Shown here: in pieces, positions 12,015-21,140 of the stretch
How the letters are laid out: the number at the start of each line of letters is the position of its first letter
Numbering within the stretch: position 1 is the first letter of the stretch
From: Gemmatimonadota bacterium
GTDB taxonomy: Bacteria > Gemmatimonadota > Gemmatimonadetes > Longimicrobiales > Gaopeijiaceae
Assembly: GCA_027623325.1 (NCBI GenBank)
Contig: JAQBXY010000030.1
Location: 1-38,429 of the forward strand
Length of the DNA: 38,429 bases
Direction: 5' to 3'
Translations under genes and position numbers: made by a program
Notes under the pieces: generated by a model
The model's input: only the letters and a program-made list of their open reading frames with translations
The model's database searches: none
What the model was told of the DNA's origin: nothing

Positions 12015-12356
12015 ATGGGCCGTAGACAGATGAACCTCCTTCAGGGCACCCTCGACGTCCTCGTCTTGCGGGCTTTGAGCGCCGAGTCTCGTCACGGATA
12101 CGAGGTCGCCGCGTGGATCCGGTCGACCACCGACGGGACATTCGAAATCGAAGACGGCGCCCTGTATACGTCTCTGCACCGCATGGAGAAGCGAGGCTGG
12201 CTTCAGTCGTCGTGGGGCGTGTCCGACACCAACCGCCGAGCCAAATACTACGCGCTGACCCCGGCGGGTCGAGTGGAGCTGAATCGGGCGAGCGGGGATT
12301 GGGCGCGGTACGCCGAGGCCGTTTTCAAAGTGCTCGAGTCGGACCAGGAAGCGTGA
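12015..12356 (+). CDS. PadR family transcriptional regulator
   Basis: This 113 aa winged-helix protein has the family run GTLDVLVLRAL, GYEVAAWI, IEDGALYTSLHRMEKRGWL (recognition helix and wing) and AKYYALTPAGRVEL, ending in a short dimerisation helix. PadR proteins of this size (subfamily 1) usually repress the gene next to them, here the permease that begins 1 base after its stop. This padR/ADOP pairing is very common in Acidobacteria and Gemmatimonadota. The ATG at 12015 has AGGGA just upstream. A Met at 12030 is an alternative start. The nested inverted repeat at 11933-11989 could overlap its operator. Confidence 0.93.
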   Translation: MGRRQMNLLQGTLDVLVLRALSAESRHGYEVAAWIRSTTDGTFEIEDGALYTSLHRMEKRGWLQSSWGVSDTNRRAKYYALTPAGRVELNRASGDWARYAEAVFKVLESDQEA

Positions 12357-12357
12357 G

Positions 12358-15078
12358 ATGAGACTGCCGCGCGGCGTCCGACGCCTCTTCCGACTCGGCA
12401 CGTTCCGACGGGACGTGGAACGGGATCTCGACGACGAGCTTGGCTTCCATCGCCAGAAACTCGTGGAGCAACTGTTGCGGGACGGGATGACGGAGCAGCA
12501 CGCGAAGGCGTTGGCACGGGAGCGGTTCGGAGACGAGCGCGCGTACCGGGAAGCACTACGGAGAATCGACACGGGGAGAGTGAGGATGAGGGAGCGCAGC
12601 GAGTTCGTCGACGTTGTGGTGGGGCTGTGGAGCCAGGCCGTGCGGAGCCTCTACCGCTCGCCTGGTCTCACCCTCGCGATTGTGGTGATCCTCGCCCTGG
12701 GGATCGGTGCGAACGCGGTCATGTTCGGTGTTGTCGATCGGCTGCTCTTGAGTCCTCCCCAACATGTAGATGACTGGGAGCAGCTCCGGCACCTCTACTT
12801 GAAGCGCACGATCTTCAATGGGGACGTCTCTACCGGTCGCACGCTCACGTACCCCGACTACGACGACCTGACCCGCGTGTCGGGCTGGTCTTCGGTCGCG
12901 GCTTATACGACCTCCCAGGCGCTGACCGTAGGGCGAGGAGAGGGCGCCCAACGGGAACGGACGGTCAAAGCCTCAGCCTCTCTCTTCCCACTCCTTGGCG
13001 TTCAACCGGTAATCGGCCGCACGTTCTCCGTGGAAGAGGATCTCGCGGGGGCCCCGCCCACGGCGGTGCTGGCTCACGAATTCTGGGAGCGTCGTTACGG
13101 AGCGGACGAAAGCGTGCTCGGGTCGAGCCTCGACATCGGGCGAGGTACGTATACCGTGATCGGCATCATGCCGCCCGGCTTCACCGGCGCGGAGCTGGAA
13201 CCCGTGGATATCTGGCTCCCATTGGAGACCGCCCAGGCGATCGAAGAACAAAACGTCGACTGGCACGATACTCGCAATTGGTGGTGGCTTCGCACCGTCG
13301 CTCGGTTGTCCGCGGAGGCCACCGACGAGGCCACGACCGCTCAGGCCACCGCGCTACATCGAGCGGGACAGGCAGAGCAGATCGAGGCCGATCGCTATGA
13401 CTCCGCGGCCGAGATCATGAGTGCACCGATCATCGCGGCTCGGGGGCCCACACCTACTGCGGAAGCCGACGTGGCTCGATGGTTGGCCGGCGTGTCGGCG
13501 ATCGTCTTGCTCATCGCCTGTCTCAACGTGGCGAACCTCCTGCTCGCTCGCGGCATCCGTACACGGCGCGAAACCGCTGTCCGTCTCGCGCTCGGTGTGA
13601 GCCGGCGGCGTCTCGTCGCACAGCTTCTAACCGAGAGCCTCGTCTTCTCCGCTCTGGGAGCCGGTGCCGCGCTCCTGGTAGCTCGCCTCGGAGGAGGCGT
13701 CCTCCACCAGCTGTTGTTGCCGAACGTGGCTTTCGCCGACCAGATGCTGAATCCGCGGCTCGTGTTCTTCACCGGAATCGCGGCCCTCCTGTCCACCCTG
13801 CTCGCCGGGGTAATCCCGGGCCTACAGGTGAGTCGGCCGGACGTCGCCGACGCTCTTCGGGATGGAGGTCGCGGTGTCTCGGGGGGTGGCTCGCGCACGC
13901 GCGCGTCGCTTCTGGTAGGACAGGCCGCACTTTCTGTCGTCCTCCTCGTTGGTGCCGGACTCTTCGTGCAAAGCTTCCGGAACGCACAAGGGATGGATCT
14001 CGGTTATGAAGCCTCGAGGGTGGCGGTGATCGCCCTCGAATGGAACGAGACACTATCCGCCGCGGATCGCGAAGCCGTCTACCAGCAGCTGCTCCCCGAG
14101 ATCCGACGCAGCCCTGCTGTGCTCGAGGCAGCCTTCACCTATACGGTTCCCTTCCAGTCGAGCATCAGCCTCGGCCAACCGAGGATCCCCGGGCGAGACT
14201 CGATCCCGCGGCACCACGGGGGAGGGCCTTACGTGAACAAGGTGAGTTCGGGGTACTTCGAGGCGATGAGGCTGTCGATCGTACGGGGTCGCTCCTTCGA
14301 GGCACTCGACGACGCCCCGCAGGCCCCGCCCGTAACCGTACTGTCCGAAAGCATGGCCACCGCGATTTGGCCCGATGAGGACCCGATCGGTCAGTGCATG
14401 GTCTTCGGCGATAGCTCGGATGCGGCTACCGCTTGCACGACCGTCGTGGGCGTCGTCGAGAACCACCGTCGACAGGCGCTCGTGGAAGACGACGAGTTCA
14501 TGTACTACGTCACACAGCGCCACCCAGCCTTAGAGCGCCCACCACAAGGGATCGTCGCAGGGACCATCGATCCCGCTTCGGACGCAGCGGAGTCCCTCAG
14601 GGTTCAAGCTGCTTCGGTTTCACCGCTAGTGCGCTTCGCTACGGTGCTGCCTCTCCAAAGTTCCATCGATCCGGCGCTTCGCCCGTGGAGGATGGGCGCG
14701 TACATGTTCACCCTGTTCGGGCTGCTCGCGCTCGTGGTCGCCGCATGGGGTTTGTACTCCGTGTTGGCGTTCGACATCGCCCTTCGGCGGCAGGAGCTGG
14801 GGGTGCGCTCGGCGCTCGGCGCCGGCGTTGGCCGGCTCGTCGGCCTCGTGTTCAAGCGCGCCGCGGGCCTGGTCATCATGGGTGTGGCGCTCGGGGTGGT
14901 GGCATCGCTCGCCGCGGCACGCTTCGTATCGCCCCTACTCTTCCAGGTGTCGCCTTCGAACCCGACGGTCTACGCCGGGGTGACGATCACGCTCCTTCTC
15001 GTGGCTGCCCTGGCCGGCACGCTGCCCGCGTTACGGGCCTCTCGAGTCGACCCGAGCGAGGCGCTCCGGGCCGACTAG
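12358..15078 (+). CDS. ADOP-type ABC transporter permease (FtsX/MacB-like)
   Basis: This 906 aa protein starts with the ADOP N-terminal helical region (RDVERDLDDELGFH...RFGD), followed by the first membrane helix (LTLAIVVILALGIGANAVMF, about residues 101-120). After that come a MacB-type periplasmic domain, an internal FtsX domain (about residues 380-490), a second periplasmic domain and a C-terminal FtsX domain with ALVVAAWGLYSVLAFDIALRR and RQELGVRSALGA, ending in LRASRVDPSEALRAD. The duplicated permease without its own ATPase is the acidobacterial duplicated orphan permease layout. A partner ATPase would be encoded elsewhere. Substrate is unknown; efflux or mechanotransmission in the envelope is usual for the superfamily. 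It is almost contiguous with padR, so repression by that product is likely. Confidence 0.95.
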   Translation: MRLPRGVRRLFRLGTFRRDVERDLDDELGFHRQKLVEQLLRDGMTEQHAKALARERFGDERAYREALRRIDTGRVRMRERSEFVDVVVGLWSQAVRSLYRSPGLTLAIVVILALGIGANAVMFGVVDRLLLSPPQHVDDWEQLRHLYLKRTIFNGDVSTGRTLTYPDYDDLTRVSGWSSVAAYTTSQALTVGRGEGAQRERTVKASASLFPLLGVQPVIGRTFSVEEDLAGAPPTAVLAHEFWERRYGADESVLGSSLDIGRGTYTVIGIMPPGFTGAELEPVDIWLPLETAQAIEEQNVDWHDTRNWWWLRTVARLSAEATDEATTAQATALHRAGQAEQIEADRYDSAAEIMSAPIIAARGPTPTAEADVARWLAGVSAIVLLIACLNVANLLLARGIRTRRETAVRLALGVSRRRLVAQLLTESLVFSALGAGAALLVARLGGGVLHQLLLPNVAFADQMLNPRLVFFTGIAALLSTLLAGVIPGLQVSRPDVADALRDGGRGVSGGGSRTRASLLVGQAALSVVLLVGAGLFVQSFRNAQGMDLGYEASRVAVIALEWNETLSAADREAVYQQLLPEIRRSPAVLEAAFTYTVPFQSSISLGQPRIPGRDSIPRHHGGGPYVNKVSSGYFEAMRLSIVRGRSFEALDDAPQAPPVTVLSESMATAIWPDEDPIGQCMVFGDSSDAATACTTVVGVVENHRRQALVEDDEFMYYVTQRHPALERPPQGIVAGTIDPASDAAESLRVQAASVSPLVRFATVLPLQSSIDPALRPWRMGAYMFTLFGLLALVVAAWGLYSVLAFDIALRRQELGVRSALGAGVGRLVGLVFKRAAGLVIMGVALGVVASLAAARFVSPLLFQVSPSNPTVYAGVTITLLLVAALAGTLPALRASRVDPSEALRAD

Positions 15079-15164
15079 CGCCGGGTGGGTCACGAGCATG
15101 AGACGGCCCAGCTGGTTTCGTCCGAACCTTTGGTCAGCCTCCTGGCTGGTCTACTTTTCCTGCC

Positions 15165-16790
15165 ATGCCCCGCACCAAGAACATCACCGCTCCCAAGCCC
15201 GACCCCGCCGAAGCGCCAGTCCGCGGCCCCGCACTCGAGGACGAGATTCGAGCCGCCGCCGATTTGCTCGAGAGGATCGGACAGGATCGATCCATTCTGT
15301 CGCACGTCGACAAAGCCGAGCAGCGACGCCTGCTCCACGCGGCGGGGAAAGTCTGGAGCCCCGATGAGACGCGGCGCCGGCAGCTGACTCGAGCACTCGC
15401 GAAGAAACGCAAGTCCGAGGCCACGAGCAAAGAGGAGAAGATCCTCAATCGGACCGGGATTCGGACGTTGCGTCGCAAGCCGACGTTCACGACGCCGAAC
15501 ATCCGCCCACCGGCACTCTCGGGCGACCGGAGCGACTCGTTGCTTCAGACGGTGGACGATCCGACCGAGGCGCGCGACGGCGGGCACCCGGGAGTGGGGG
15601 AGCAGCACTGCTACGTGTGCAAGGTCCACTTCACCGACCTCCATCACTTCTACGACCAGCTTTGCCCCGCGTGCGCCGACCAGAACTATCAGAAACGGGG
15701 CGAGTTGGCGGATCTGTCGGGCCGGGTCGCGCTCCTTACCGGCGGCCGCGTCAAGATCGGCTACCAGGCAGGCATCAAACTCCTTCGTTGCGGCGCCGAG
15801 CTGATCGTTACCACACGCTTCCCCAGGGACGCGGCGGCCCGCTACGCACGTGAAGACGACTTCGAAGACTGGAAGCATCGGCTGCAGATCTTCGGCCTAG
15901 ACCTGCGCCACACTCCGAGCGTAGAGGCGTTCTGCACGGAACTCCTCGAAACCCGGGAACGCCTGGACTTCATCATCAGCAACGCGTGCCAGACCGTCCG
16001 GCGACCGCCGGACTTCTACGCGCACATGATGGCCAACGAGGTAGCGGCCCTCGATGCCCTTCCTGATGCCATTCAGAATCTGCTCGGTTCGTACGAAGGT
16101 CGGCGCGGAATCGAACTCGTCTCGAACGGAACGGCGGTCGCTTCACTCGGGTCGCGATCCTCGAACGGAACCGAACTCCCGGGGCTCACACACGCCGCCG
16201 AACTCTCCCAGGTCCGCCTTCTGCCCGAGGAGGTACATGCGCGACAGGCCCTCTTCCCCGCAGGTGAGCTGGACCAGGACCTTCAACAAATCGACCTGCG
16301 CGAAAGCAACTCCTGGCGCATGCTGCTGGCGGACGTGCCGACGGTCGAGCTGTTGGAGGTGCAACTCGTCAACGCGATTGCGCCGTTCGTGTTGAACGCA
16401 CGGCTCAAGGCGCTCATGCTGCGCACGGACAGTCGCGACAAACACATCGTCAATGTGTCTGCGGTCGAAGGACAGTTCTATCGGAATTGCAAGACGACGC
16501 GGCACCCGCACACGAACATGGCGAAGGCGGCGGTGAACATGATGACGCGGACCTCAGCGACGGACTACCACAACGATGGCATCCACATGAACGCCGTGGA
16601 CACCGGATGGGTAACCGACGAGGATCCAGAGGCCATCGCCGAAAGAAAGACCGAGATGCATCGCTTCCACCCACCCCTCGACATCGTCGACGGCGCGGCG
16701 CGCATCGTGGACCCGATCATCCGTGGCTTCAACACGGGCGAGCACGTCTGGGGGCAGTTCCTGAAGGACTACGCGCCCACCGACTGGTAG
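15165..16790 (+). CDS. SDR-like oxidoreductase with an N-terminal zinc-ribbon-like module and altered active site
   Basis: This encodes 541 aa, about twice a typical SDR. Residues 1-145 are basic and charged, with a helical region (DLLERIGQDRSILSHVDKAE). C149-x2-C152 and C167-x2-C170 form a probable zinc-binding pair with HFTDLHHFYDQL between them. The Rossmann part begins at LSGRVALLTGGRVKIGYQAG (about 184-203) and continues through VTTRFPRDAA, LDLRH and FIISNAC in place of NAG. The active-site Ser is S432 (NVSAVEG). The YxxxK position reads T450-N-M-A-K454, so the usual catalytic Tyr is Thr. The end (TGWVTDEDP, GQFLKDYAPTDW) is SDR-like. Either another residue such as Y439 serves as acid, or the protein is not a classical dehydrogenase. 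No signal peptide, so cytoplasmic. Substrate unknown. Confidence 0.85.
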   Translation: MPRTKNITAPKPDPAEAPVRGPALEDEIRAAADLLERIGQDRSILSHVDKAEQRRLLHAAGKVWSPDETRRRQLTRALAKKRKSEATSKEEKILNRTGIRTLRRKPTFTTPNIRPPALSGDRSDSLLQTVDDPTEARDGGHPGVGEQHCYVCKVHFTDLHHFYDQLCPACADQNYQKRGELADLSGRVALLTGGRVKIGYQAGIKLLRCGAELIVTTRFPRDAAARYAREDDFEDWKHRLQIFGLDLRHTPSVEAFCTELLETRERLDFIISNACQTVRRPPDFYAHMMANEVAALDALPDAIQNLLGSYEGRRGIELVSNGTAVASLGSRSSNGTELPGLTHAAELSQVRLLPEEVHARQALFPAGELDQDLQQIDLRESNSWRMLLADVPTVELLEVQLVNAIAPFVLNARLKALMLRTDSRDKHIVNVSAVEGQFYRNCKTTRHPHTNMAKAAVNMMTRTSATDYHNDGIHMNAVDTGWVTDEDPEAIAERKTEMHRFHPPLDIVDGAARIVDPIIRGFNTGEHVWGQFLKDYAPTDW

Positions 16791-17211: not shown

Positions 17212-17571
17212 CTACTCCTCCCGCAACACGGTCACCGGATCGAGTCGGGTCGCACGCCGCGCGGGAATCCAGGACGCGGCCAGCGCGACGGATATGAGAA
17301 CGACCGGACCGACCAGGAAGGCGATGGGGTCACGGGCGTCGACGTCGTAGAGCATCGACTCCATTACGCCTGTCAGCGCCCAAGCTCCTGCCACACCGAG
17401 CGCGAGCCCGATCAGGGTGACCTTGAGGCCCTGCCCCAACACGAGCTTCTGAACGGTCGACGCCTCGGCACCCATCGCCATCCGAATACCGATCTCGCGC
17501 CCCCGCTGAGAGACGGAATACGACATCACGCCGTACGTACCCACGGCTGCGAGGAGCAAGGCGAGGAGTCC
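17212..17571 (-). pseudogene. C-terminal fragment of an FtsX/MacB-type ABC permease
   Basis: About 119 codons encode the last FtsX domain of an ADOP-like permease. They read [20 protein letters not shown], then [35 protein letters not shown] and the typical end [19 protein letters not shown]. Upstream of about 17571 the same frame stays open but reads as unrelated sequence, antisense to the pterin dehydratase gene, with no permease similarity. The gene is therefore broken within the last membrane domain and about 85 percent of a normal permease is missing. No start codon with a ribosome site precedes it. It is not a copy of the permease at 12358-15078, since the wording differs. Confidence 0.8.
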
Positions 17572-17769
17572 CGGCTCCGGAGGATTGTCCGAGTTCGACA
17601 TGGTACCGCACGATTGGGGCCGTTGGGGGCAAGGGCAAGTCGTCGGATCGCGAATCGACCGCCTGCCTCGCCGCTCGAGGGGTCTCGCTCTACTTTCGTG
17701 GCGCAGAGCAGTCGCTCGGAGGACGCGAACTGTGAACCGCCGAGCCCCCACAAAGGAGAAGCGCCCGAG

Positions 17770-18114
17770 ATGGAACCGATCGCACGGATGAAATGCACGG
17801 CCTGCCGCGTGGGGGCTCCGACGGTTACCGACGCGGAGCGAGACGAACTCCACGCCGCCGTGCCCGAGTGGGCACTGGTCGAGCGCGAAGCGATTCCCCG
17901 GCTCGAACGTGTTTTCGCGTTCCCGAATTTCGAAGATGCGCTCGCGTTCACCAACGCGGTGGGGGCACTGGCCGAAGAGGAGGGCCATCACCCCGCGCTC
18001 CTGACCGAGTGGGGCCGTGTGACCGTGACGTGGTGGACGCACAAGATCCGTGGGCTCCATCAGAACGACTTCATCATGGCGGCCAAGACGGACGAGCTTC
18101 AGGGAGTCGCGTGA
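17770..18114 (+). CDS. phhB: pterin-4a-carbinolamine dehydratase
   Basis: This encodes 114 aa. The ATG at 17770 follows AAAGGAG (17752-17758) at 11 bases; a Met at 17788 is an alternative start. The N-terminus [17 protein letters not shown] and the catalytic block GHHP (H73, H74) with W89 and T90-H91 are diagnostic of this family. The enzyme dehydrates 4a-hydroxytetrahydrobiopterin to recycle the pterin cofactor of aromatic amino acid hydroxylases, and some homologues serve molybdopterin-related or folate chemistry. No hydroxylase is in the window. The final TGA overlaps the GTG of the PQQ dehydrogenase (GTGA), an unexpected coupling of a cytoplasmic pterin enzyme to a secreted quinoprotein. 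The symbol is by family. Confidence 0.92.
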
Positions 18115-21100
18115 AGAAGAGGCCGTTGGTCCGGGAGGCGCGTGGACGCCTGGGAGCGGCGCTCGTATCGGTCGCCCTGTTCGGTCCGCCCATGGGCACG
18201 TCAGCCCAGCAGCCTCCCCCGAGCGCGTGGCCCTACTTCGGCGGCGAGCGCTCGTTCCAGCGGTATGCACCGCTCACTCAGATCGATCGGAACAACGTCG
18301 GTGCGCTCCAGGTGCTCTGGCGGCGGCCTGCGGTGGACCCAGCACACACCGCAGCCTTTCCTGATGACGCGGTCCCGGGCAATCTGCGGTCGACTCCGAT
18401 CCTCGTCGACGGAGTGCTCTTCGCGCCGAATGCTCTCGGACTCGTGGAAGCGTTCGACCCCGGAACGGGAGAGACGATCTGGAGACAGCGACCCTTCGGG
18501 GGGGCAGCCGACGCAGCCCGCGGGCGCAGTTCTCGTGGGGTCGACTATTGGCGGAGTGGGACCGAGGGCCGACTCCTGTCCGTTCGCGATGCGTACCTCT
18601 ACGCCCTCGACCCTGCGACCGGCATACCCTTCCCCGATTTCGGGGACGGCGGCCGCGTGAACCTGATTCCATCCACCGGGCGCTCGTACAGCTGGAGTTC
18701 GGGGCCGATCGTGGTCGGTGATGTGATCGTGGTGGGCGGAGTCGTGGACGGCGCCGGAGACTCGGGCATGCAGTGGCGCGGCAGCGCACCCGAGAACGTG
18801 CGCGGATACGACGTGCGTACCGGCGCACTTCTGTGGGCCTTCCACGTGGTACCGGAGGATGGCGAGTTGGGCGTCGATACCTGGGGCGACGACTCGTGGA
18901 TGTACTCGGGTGACCTCGGGTCGTGGTGTTGTATGAGCGCGGATGAGAGCCTCGGGCTGGTGTACGTACCGCTCGGGGCACCGACCGCCGCCTACTACGG
19001 AGGCCATCGGCCCGGGGCGAACCTGTTCTCGAACAGCCTGCTCGCGCTCGACGCAAAGACAGGGGAGCGCGTCTGGCACTTCCAGATGGTCCACCACGAC
19101 CTGTGGGAGTACGACACCGTCGGCCCGCCGACGCTGGGAGACATCACCGTGAACGGCCGGCTTGTCCGAGCGGTCATGCAGCCGAGCAAGACGGGCTTCC
19201 TGTACGTATTCGATCGCCTCACCGGCGAGCCCGTGTGGCCCATCGAGGAGCGCGCGGTTCCGCAGTCGACGGTGCCGGGGGAGCGCACCTCCCCGACTCA
19301 GCCCTTCCCGACCAAGCCCGCACCTTTCGCGCAGCAGGCTGTGACCGTCGACGACCTGATCGACTTCACGCCCGACCTCCGGCGCCGGGCACTGGCCCTC
19401 GCGGATTCCTTTCTGCTTGGTGGGATCTTCACGCCCCCGTCGCTCGTGGTCGGTCGGACGGACGGGAAGCGAGGCACCCTGTCGCTGCCGGGCTCGTGGG
19501 GGGCCGGGAACTGGAATACAGGAGCGTTCGACCCTGAAACCGGGATCTACTACGCGTTCGCTCACGCCATCCCCCGAGTCTATCGGCTGGAGGAAGCAAC
19601 CGACCCCGAGTCGGAGATGGAGTATTGGAGCCCCGGCCGGGACGCCCCCTACTTGGACGGCCTCCCCATCACCAAGCCGCCGTGGGGACGCATCACCGCC
19701 ATCGACATGAACACGGGCGAGCACGTCTGGTCCGCCGCGAACGGTCGCGGGCCCGTGGACCATCCACTCCTCGACAACCCCGAACTGCCCGACCTGGGGG
19801 TCGCGAGTCGGCCCGCCGCGTTGGTGACCCGCACGCTTCTCTTCATGGGCGACGGAGGGAACGTCTTCGGCGGCGTCCAGCGCAACATGTGGGGGAAGGG
19901 CTTCCGTGCCTACGACAAAGCGACCGGCGACGTGATTTGGGAGACCGAACTGCCCACCGGCGCGACCGGTGCGCCCATGTCGTACATGCATCGAGGGAAG
20001 CAGTACATCGTGGTCCCCATCGGGGGCCGGGACGAGCCGCCGGAGTGGGTAGCGCTCGGGATCCCGTCGCAGGAGCGAACGTTCGTGTGGACCGACCGCC
20101 AGGTACTCGGCACCGAGTCGCAGCTGAGCGCCGGGATGACCTTCGCGGATGTCGATGGTGATGGAGACATGGACGCACTCGTGGCCAATGGTCGGCATTG
20201 GCCCCAGGCGAGTGAGGTCTACCTGAACAACGGATCCGGCCGTTTCACGGTCTCCTACGAACTAGGCCGCCTGCGCGCGACGACCTACGCCCTCCCGGCC
20301 GGAGATCTGGACGGCGATGGTGATATCGATGTCGTCGTGGCCAACGACCAGGCAGAAAACTGGGTCTACCTGAACGACGGAACGGGGCACTTCGAGATGG
20401 CGTGGCCGGTCGGCCCTGAGGTCGAGCCGACGCGGAGCGCGCAGCTGTTCGACCTCGATGAGGACGGCGACTTGGACTTGCTCATTACCAACCGAGGGGC
20501 GAGCAACGGACTCTTCTTGAACGATGGCCGTGGACGCTTCGGACCCAAGCGGGAGTTCGGGAAGGCCGACGGCTCTACGATCGCCGTGGCCGTGGGCGAT
20601 GTGGATGCCGATGGCGACCAGGACCTCGTGCTCGCCAATCGAGACGGCCAGGCCAACCAGATACTCCTCAACGATGGTCGCCTCGGTTTCGCGCAGGAAC
20701 TGGCGTACGGCACCGGAAGCGATGAGACCCGTTCCGCCGCGCTGGCCGATCTGAACGGCGACGGGATTCTGGACATCGTCAACGTGAACATCGGAGAGCC
20801 CAACCGTGTGTACCTGGGCGATGGCAAGGGCGGCTTCGACGCGGGAACCAGCATCGGAGAGTTGGAGGAATCGTACGCAGTGGTCGTCGTCGACGTCGAT
20901 CTCGATGGTGATCTCGACGTCGTCGTAGGGAACGACGGGGGGCGTAACGAGCTTTATCTGAACGATGGTTCTGGGACCGGATGGACGCGCTCGTGGATCG
21001 GCGAAGCCGCCGACAACAGCTACGGCGTGGCGGCAGCGGATCTCAACGGAGACGGCTTCCCGGACCTGGGGTTCGCGAATTCGGGCGCCCCCAATCGCAT

Positions 21101-21140
21101 CTTCCTCAATCGACCGAGTAGGCCGAACGCACCGCGCTAG
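18111..21140 (+). CDS. secreted PQQ-dependent dehydrogenase with a C-terminal seven-repeat FG-GAP/VCBS propeller
   Basis: The GTG at 18111, which overlaps the pterin dehydratase stop and has AGGGAG upstream, gives 1009 aa with a signal peptide ([20 protein letters not shown]). Residues about 35-660 form the quinoprotein propeller. Evidence includes [88 protein letters not shown] and [20 protein letters not shown], all matching glucose-dehydrogenase-type enzymes. A C-C pair lies near residue 272. From about 665 there are seven calcium-type repeats: [54 protein letters not shown] and DLNGDGFPD. Each is followed by a YLN-type strand. This should fold as a second seven-bladed, integrin-like propeller. 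The enzyme probably oxidises sugars or alcohols in the periplasm. No PQQ synthesis genes are in view. Confidence 0.93.

What the first reader, a model, noticed from the sequence alone, without database searches (positions are those of the whole stretch)
15165..16790. SDR-like protein with a CxxC/CxxC module and Thr in place of the catalytic Tyr
The protein is twice normal SDR length, has C149/C152/C167/C170 before the Rossmann fold, SNAC in place of NAG, and T-x-x-x-K (450-454) where Tyr-x-x-x-Lys is expected. This suggests either a new active site (Y439 is close to S432) or a non-catalytic, NAD-sensing role with a zinc module that could bind nucleic acid or protein.
Basis: partly seen in the sequence, partly recalled or inferred. 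Interest (0 to 1): 0.55.

Follow-up and report, generated by a model that had tools for sequence, protein, structure and literature searches.

The report
Tyrosine-less SDR family with Cys4 module
This gene encodes a member of an uncharacterised but strongly conserved branch of a common enzyme family, in which the usual catalytic tyrosine is a threonine in every copy examined and a four-cysteine (probably zinc-binding) knot precedes the cofactor-binding fold, so it probably does unusual NADPH chemistry.

Summary
ORF 15165-16790 (541 aa) is an SDR-fold protein (Pfam adh_short) with a variable N-terminal extension, a C-x2-C-x14-C-x2-C module and an insertion that splits the Rossmann domain. In all 147 aligned rows (139 distinct cores, 12 clusters at 75% identity) the four cysteines, Thr450, Lys454, Asn403, Glu435, Lys443, His447 and His449 are invariant, with fixed spacing. 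No row has Tyr at 450, so this is not a mutation in one copy. S432 is not the catalytic serine; that position is A433. The Gly-rich motif is also altered (TGGRxKIG). The active-site segment is the best conserved part (40 of 60 columns), which argues for a working enzyme rather than a dead scaffold. I propose an NADP(H)-dependent reductase with a replaced acid/base set and a structural Cys4 module. Relatives occur in several bacterial phyla, on two phage-like contigs and, by structure match, in giant viruses. Substrate unknown; no gene neighbour conserved between phyla. New variant of a known kind.

The parts
15165..16790 (+). Whole gene, 541 aa, SDR-fold protein of the Tyr-less Cys4 family
   Evidence: ORF; Pfam adh_short E 3.8e-12; relatives at up to 78% identity over residues 15-541
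15228..15476 (+). N-terminal helical extension (residues 22-104), variable, absent in the shortest member
   Evidence: AlphaFold2 helices, block pLDDT 78-91 for residues 21-100; 1 of 142 N-terminal columns conserved at 97%; only 18 residues before the first Cys in L128
15597..15707 (+). Cys4 module (C149, C152, C167, C170), presumed zinc ribbon/knuckle
   Evidence: four Cys 147 of 147, spacing 2/14/2 in 147 of 147; metal binding inferred
15738..15761 (+). Altered dinucleotide motif TGGRVKIG (residues 192-199); R195 147 of 147, K197 146 of 147
   Evidence: an ordinary SDR of the same genome (L129) has TGGSRGIG here
15816..15818 (+). R218 after beta-2 (TTRFP), predicted NADP 2'-phosphate contact
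   Evidence: 147 of 147; role inferred
15993..16328 (+). Insertion that splits the SDR domain (residues 277-388), with the invariant NSW motif at 382-384
   Evidence: two Pfam stretches; 22 of 112 columns conserved at 97%; N382, S383, W384 invariant
16371..16373 (+). N403, the retained Asn of the SDR tetrad
   Evidence: 147 of 147; aligned to the N of AANLKGAF in L129
16461..16469 (+). A433-V434-E435: catalytic Ser position is Ala; E435 invariant
   Evidence: A433 146 of 147 (Ser in L162), E435 147 of 147; alignment
16479..16481 (+).
   Evidence: Y in 139 of 147; exceptions are divergent members
16491..16526 (+). K443 to K454 segment with invariant K443, H447, H449, T450 (Tyr position), N451, K454
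   Evidence: all 147 of 147; T450 aligned to the catalytic Tyr

Best explanation
It is a member of an uncharacterised SDR family that keeps the Rossmann fold, a (modified) NADP(H) site and the Asn and Lys of the catalytic tetrad, but has lost both the Ser (A433) and the Tyr (T450). I infer that it is a working NADP(H)-dependent oxidoreductase in which protonation is done by an invariant polar set in the same loop (E435, K443, H447, H449; possibly through ordered water with N403 and K454), as expected for an enzyme acting on a conjugated or otherwise activated substrate. The Cys4 module most likely binds one zinc and acts as a structural clip before the Rossmann fold. Shown (by sequence and predicted structure): fold, substitutions, conservation, variable ends. 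Inferred: cofactor, metal, acid/base residues, reductase direction. Substrate unknown.
For: SDR fold in both predicted models: VIA Z 21.3, rmsd 2.6, 219 aligned with 3f9i for the window protein, and Z 23.7, rmsd 2.5, 218 aligned with 2ae2 for the 368-aa member L128. Asn403 and Lys454 retained in 147 of 147; E435, K443, H447, H449, T450, N451 in 147 of 147. The best conserved segment is the active site, 40 of 60 columns against 46 of 94 in the first Rossmann half and 1 of 142 in the N-terminus: not the pattern of a decayed active site. Basic residues R195, K197 and R218 point to NADP(H); PMC4988501 (passages) calls a Lys in this motif (TGxxKGIG) predictive of NADP(H), though there the Lys is one place earlier than K197. 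Working Tyr-less SDRs exist: isopiperitenone reductase, Glu for Tyr, conjugate C=C reduction (PMC4988501 passages); SimC7, Ile for Tyr and His for Lys, substrate-assisted ketoreduction (PMC5039031 passages); human DECR2, whose acidic residues around the active site and K182 were needed for complementation (PMC12691678 section 11; that DECR2 lacks the usual Tyr is recalled).
Against: No assay, no substrate and no operon conserved between phyla support a reaction. K197 replaces a Gly of the dinucleotide motif and might weaken binding. The active-site loop is poorly predicted (residues 435-447 pLDDT under 50; blocks 261-270 and 271-280 of L128 68 and 60), and no coordinates were available, so closeness of E435, H447 and H449 to the nicotinamide is not shown. 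Conservation alone could also preserve a ligand-sensing pocket. L162 has an ordinary Ser and Gly at 433 and 197, so part of the signature is not absolute.
Confidence: 0.5

Rival explanations
1. Pseudo-enzyme: an NADP(H)-binding SDR that senses redox state and uses the Cys4 module and N-terminal helices to bind a partner protein or nucleic acid.
For: Ser and Tyr both replaced; Cys4 module in 147 of 147 rows; no pathway neighbours conserved between phyla. A non-catalytic SDR domain is described in malonyl-CoA reductase (PMC10470521, passages).
Against: The pocket loop is the best conserved segment while the N-terminus, the likely partner surface, is nearly unconserved; no recognisable nucleic-acid-binding family in the Cys4 stretch; Asn403 and Lys454 retained.
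Confidence: 0.2
2. Substrate-assisted catalysis as in SimC7: the protein only positions NADPH and a conjugated substrate, which supplies the proton itself; E435, H447 and H449 only bind the substrate.
For: SimC7 precedent (PMC5039031, passages); Tyr and Ser both replaced here.
Against: Unlike SimC7 the Lys is kept and several ionisable residues in the loop are invariant, which is more than substrate positioning would seem to need (inference).
Confidence: 0.12
3. DECR1-like site: Y439 takes over as catalytic tyrosine, T450 being the Ser of the Tyr-x10-Ser-x3-Lys arrangement (DECR1 numbering and spacing recalled from memory, not checked in a call).
For: Y439-x10-T450-x3-K454 has the recalled spacing; Y439 is Y in 139 of 147 rows.
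Against: All eight exceptions are divergent members with T, G, S, N or Q, although E435, K443, H447, H449, T450, N451 and K454 are kept in them.
Confidence: 0.04
4. Metal-dependent SDR: E435, H447 and H449 form a 2-His-1-carboxylate site whose metal replaces Ser and Tyr as Lewis acid.
For: E435, H447 and H449 are 147 of 147, and the E435-H447 spacing is fixed; the H-x-H pattern is common in metal sites (general knowledge).
Against: No coordinates to test distances; loop of low confidence; the phrase 'metal-dependent SDR' occurs in none of the 10 papers listed, of 289 found.
Confidence: 0.1

Closest known systems
Classical SDRs (FabG, tropinone reductase; Pfam PF00106/PF13561)
   Same: Rossmann fold, Asn and Lys of the tetrad, overall order of elements
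   Different: Ser and Tyr replaced by Ala and Thr, Gly motif TGGRxKIG, 4 extra residues before the Tyr position, about 110-residue insertion, Cys4 module in front
Isopiperitenone reductase of Mentha (PMC4988501, passages)
   Same: SDR with the catalytic Tyr replaced, NADP(H)-dependent
   Different: Tyr to Glu at the Tyr position itself, Ser kept; here Thr, with Glu and His elsewhere in the loop
SimC7 ketoreductase (PMC5039031, passages)
   Same: SDR without the catalytic Tyr; works on a conjugated substrate with NADP(H)
   Different: extended SDR, Ser kept, Lys lost (His); here Ser lost and Lys kept
BcSDR of Burkholderia cenocepacia (PMC11614110, passages)
   Same: Tyr-less motif conserved across a clade, NADP+ bound in the crystal, mechanism unknown
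   Different: L-x3-K with a Ser near the active site; no Cys4 module mentioned in the passages seen
2,4-dienoyl-CoA reductases DECR1/DECR2 (4fc6 found; PMC12691678 section 11)
   Same: SDR reductases without the usual Tyr (recalled); DECR2 depends on acidic residues and a Lys
   Different: no Cys4 module or insertion (recalled); different loop
Giant-virus oxidoreductases A0A3G5A578 (Harvfovirus), A0A1V0SKJ3 (Klosneuvirus), A0A3G5A6W1 (Homavirus)
   Same: best structural matches of the L128 model among viral models, E 4e-30 to 2e-25 at 30-35% identity, far ahead of other SDRs; probably the same family
   Different: longer (572-635 aa); their active-site letters were not seen

Membership tests
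SDR superfamily (fold) | Rossmann fold matching SDR structures | tested here: met
   VIA Z 21.3, 219 aligned, rmsd 2.6; Z 23.7, 218 aligned, rmsd 2.5 for L128; Pfam above cut-off
Classical SDR | TGxxx[G/A]xG dinucleotide motif | tested here: not met
   TGGRVKIG, K197 in place of the second Gly, in 146 of 147 rows
Classical SDR | Catalytic YxxxK | tested here: not met
   T450-x3-K454 in 147 of 147 rows
Classical SDR | Catalytic Ser at the end of beta-5 | tested here: not met
   A433 in 146 of 147; Ser only in L162
Classical SDR | Asn of the tetrad on alpha-4 | tested here: met
   N403 147 of 147, aligned
Zinc ribbon / treble-clef modules | Two CxxC knuckles | tested here: met
   C-x2-C-x14-C-x2-C in 147 of 147
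Zinc ribbon / treble-clef modules | Bound zinc | not testable with these tools
   no metal data; Zn_ribbon_8 only E 0.048, below cut-off
DECR1-like SDR | Substitute Tyr upstream (Y-x10-S/T-x3-K, recalled) | tested here: not met
   Y439 missing in 8 of 147, all divergent
Named NCBIfam SDR families | Score above the curated cut-off | tested here: not met
   none of the 25 families shown (of 149 at E 1 or less) reaches its cut-off; best 58.3 bits against 279
Known anti-phage defence protein | PADLOC model match | tested here: not met
   0 families at E 0.01 or less for three members

The most novel reading that the evidence does not exclude
The family is a metal-dependent SDR: invariant E435, H447 and H449 form a mononuclear 2-His-1-carboxylate site next to the nicotinamide, so that a metal ion, not Ser and Tyr, polarises the substrate; the Cys4 module is a separate structural zinc.
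Probability: 0.1. Interest if true: 0.75.

Novelty: new variant of a known kind. Interest (0 to 1): 0.48.

Why it matters
The SDR superfamily is usually described by its catalytic Tyr; one alignment of over 500 SDRs quoted in PMC4988501 (passages) showed only four further Tyr substitutions. Here a whole family, found in Gemmatimonadota, Pseudomonadota (mainly Lysobacteraceae and Rhodanobacteraceae), Verrucomicrobiota, Acidobacteriota, Elusimicrobiota, actinomycetes, Deinococcus, two phage-like contigs and apparently giant viruses, has a fixed Tyr-free site and a fixed Cys4 module, while automatic annotation calls it simply an SDR oxidoreductase. It is a well-defined target for finding new NADPH chemistry, and its strict conservation predicts a specific substrate.

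Tried and rejected
Gene-neighbourhood inference. A home-made codon-usage gene caller on 89 loci gave 12 upstream and 7 downstream same-strand genes within 100 bp. The largest shared neighbour cluster (12 loci; I take it for a pirin by eye, and one of the 30 proteins matched Pirin) is confined to Pseudomonadota loci. Of 35 same-strand neighbours within 150 bp, 29 were scanned, plus one LRR gene next to L126 (30 in all; L044, L047, L052, L065 and L082 were left out as near-duplicates and L010 because of an N-run): no Pfam family matched more than 2 of 30 in the 25 of 63 families shown. A first attempt with plain ORFs was swamped by shadow ORFs of GC-rich DNA. The apparent esterase fusion in L010 spans a run of N and is taken as an artefact.

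Frequent horizontal transfer. Rejected as the default: in an 84-row quick tree the five labelled phyla (11 rows unlabelled) need 5 changes where 4 is the minimum; distant branches are long and unsure.

Y439 as catalytic tyrosine: rejected by divergent members. Row clean-up: one search held one wrong-frame remnant row, removed, and a 5'-truncated row of L091, replaced by its full frame from then on.

Sensitivity and bias. One search kept 80 of 253 relatives; one of its six peptide patterns lies in the Cys4 module, none in the 426-454 loop. The viral-contig scans (only two contigs in all) used patterns that include parts of that loop, so L126 and perhaps L128 are biased towards it. The plasmid records (tblastn) and the profile hits were not chosen by such patterns. 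Not all members found were read: 30 loci plus 18 second copies, 4 of the 10 genomes, none new; the members reported in two pieces (e.g. G010, G011, G030) were not read except G829. The 147 rows contain 139 distinct cores, 94 at 90% and 12 at 75% identity.

The own-genome SDR control is not clean. Of 12 stretches, L137 was read in a wrong frame and stayed in the profile; of the 11 others, 9 have the Tyr and L134 and L140 lack it at that position. Tyr loss alone is therefore not unique in this genome; the combination is.

Phage collection: no tblastn match. phrog_3142 matches, but it also rings in all 14 control genomes, so it is mostly a generic SDR family. Solved structures: only general SDRs, no family member. 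Literature: the listings (3 of 4 papers; none found; 15 of 94; 9 of 9; 10 of 289; none found) showed no paper on this family; (10 of 233) was a DECR search, (6 of 6) one on SDR structures, and one search listed one giant-virus review, not read. Structures missing from the fold-search rows are not excluded by that.

Full report
OBSERVATION. The ORF at 15165-16790 (+) codes for 541 residues. Pfam places it in the short-chain dehydrogenases (adh_short 3.8e-12 in two stretches, adh_short_C2 1.4e-11). The N-terminal Rossmann half (about 183-276) and the active-site half (about 389-494) are separated by an insertion. NCBIfam gives only below-cut-off matches among the 25 of 149 families shown (best 58.3 bits against 279), and no solved structure belongs to the family (best profile match 3.5e-9, an ordinary SDR).

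FAMILY. A scan of one genome per species gave 253 relatives, of which 80 were kept: Gemmatimonadota, Verrucomicrobiota, Acidobacteriota, Elusimicrobiota, Pseudomonadota and some unlabelled bins. More distant members are on plasmid records of Deinococcus, Tsukamurella and two Streptomyces and on two IMG/VR contigs: a provirus-like contig at whose edge the gene lies (L126; I guess a cyanobacterial host, untested) and a contig with ParB-like, DNA methylase-like, integrase-like and terminase-like ORFs (L128; labels by eye). The family is patchy. Strong matches (E below 1e-100) are in 15 of 59 close relatives, the own genome included. With the profile at E 1e-30 it is found in 76 of 298 genomes of the window's phylum, in 38 of 200 of the order and 2 of 274 of the class of a Rhodanobacter genome, and in 10 of 199 of the phylum of an Acidobacteriota genome; each count includes the centre genome. 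A quick tree of 84 rows follows the phyla closely (5 changes, minimum 4), so old descent with losses fits better than rampant transfer, although distant branches are long and unsure.

ACTIVE SITE. A profile alignment with SDRs of the same genome (one of its 12 rows was a wrong frame) lays IVNVSAVEGQF....HPHTNMAKAA on ILNISSVVGLT....QVNYAASKAG. The catalytic Ser position is therefore A433, not S432. T450 stands at the Tyr, K454 at the Lys, N403 at the alpha-4 Asn, and there are four extra residues before the Tyr position. The dinucleotide motif is TGGRVKIG where L129 has TGGSRGIG. In 147 rows (139 distinct cores, 94 at 90% and 12 at 75% identity), C149, C152, C167, C170, R195, R218, N273, Q276, W384, E398, N403, E435, K443, H447, H449, T450, N451, K454, D479, W482, K534 and W541 are invariant. 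K197 and A433 are 146 of 147, the exception being the Acidobacteriota member L162, which has the ordinary Gly and Ser but still Thr450. Y439 is Y in 139 of 147 and T, G, S, N or Q in eight divergent members. Spacings are rigid: Cys 2/14/2, A433 to T450 16 residues between, E435 to H447 11, T450 to K454 3, all in 147 of 147. Position 272 is N in 136 of 143 rows, so the window's SNAC is a minor variant of NNAC. Against uniqueness: two of eleven readable SDRs of the same genome also lack the Tyr.

WHERE THE CONSERVATION LIES. Columns conserved at 97% or more in 143 rows: active-site segment 40 of 60, first Rossmann half 46 of 94, C-terminus 24 of 56, Cys4 module 13 of 37, alpha-4 13 of 37, insertion 22 of 112, N-terminus 1 of 142. 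The shortest member has 18 residues before the first Cys and 69 residues in the stretch aligned to 277-381, so the minimal family unit is Cys4 module plus SDR domain.

STRUCTURE. The window model is modest (mean pLDDT 69, pTM 0.66; residues 435-447 under 50). The model of L128, made with a 58-row alignment, is better (79.5, pTM 0.83), but the loop holding the E435, K443, H447 and H449 equivalents is still at about 60-68. Both are SDR folds (Z 21.3 with 3f9i, 219 aligned, rmsd 2.6; Z 23.7 with 2ae2, 218 aligned, rmsd 2.5). The Cys4 module and N-terminus were barely covered by these matches.

VIRUSES. Against predicted viral structures the L128 model picks out Harvfovirus, Klosneuvirus and Homavirus oxidoreductases of 572-635 aa and one unnamed 432-aa protein (E 4e-30 to 3e-19, 28-35% identity), with the next SDR at 1e-8. 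I read this as family membership; their active-site letters were not seen.

MECHANISM. Tyr-less SDRs that work are known: isopiperitenone reductase (Glu; PMC4988501, passages), SimC7 (PMC5039031, passages) and DECR2 (Tyr loss recalled), whose acidic residues and Lys were needed for complementation (PMC12691678, section 11); a crystallised LxxxK SDR of unknown mechanism binds NADP+ (PMC11614110, passages). The substrates of the first three suggest, as an inference, that Tyr loss goes with activated or conjugated substrates. My best reading is an NADP(H)-dependent reductase whose acid/base work is taken over by the E435, K443, H447, H449 cluster, with N403 and K454 holding the cofactor and water, and a structural zinc in the Cys4 module. 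The cofactor, metal and chemistry are inferred. The pseudo-enzyme reading is weakened, not excluded, by the fact that the pocket is the best conserved part.

CONTEXT. No neighbour was found conserved between phyla. In the window the gene lies 86 bp after a MacB/FtsX-like permease gene; a terminator-like hairpin lies between them (15130-15151), but such matches are near the shuffled expectation (2 against mean 1.0, sd 1.0), and no sigma-70-type site was found. No PADLOC match.

VERDICT. New variant of a known kind.

Noticed in passing
window 17793-21140 +: A PQQ-dependent dehydrogenase beta-propeller (PF01011, 568 bits) continues in one frame into FG-GAP-type repeats (seven FG-GAP_3 stretches), which looks like an unusual combination; the true start is probably downstream, near 18110.
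   Followed up: no
window 17212-18270 -: An FtsX-type permease C-terminal match (residues 235-345 of a 352-codon frame) without an N-terminal part; the frame also overlaps the pterin-4a-carbinolamine dehydratase ORF (17773-18111 +). Looks like a remnant of a MacB-like permease.
   Followed up: partly
L128 5968-7074: A 368-aa member of the family lies on a phage-like contig, after a DNA methylase-like ORF and before integrase-like and terminase-like ORFs (labels by eye); a possible phage-borne metabolic gene.
   Followed up: partly
L126 1303-2460: In the provirus-like contig the next gene, a few bases downstream, encodes a leucine-rich-repeat protein; possible operon partner, seen in this one locus.
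   Followed up: no
genus g62 of the window's phylum (e.g. G084, G132, G102): 14 of the 16 genomes of this genus listed with a match carry two copies of the gene; the copies that were fetched all have the Cys4, Thr450, Glu435 and His447/His449 signature.
   Followed up: partly
L140 (G000:C54:8647-9448) and L134 (G000:C3:12979-13870): Two other SDRs of the same genome also lack the catalytic Tyr at its usual position (PHHAVSK with His, and LSNSLR with Ser and Arg).
   Followed up: no
window 12015-15078 +: PadR-type regulator followed directly by a MacB/FtsX-like permease, just upstream of the gene studied.
   Followed up: no
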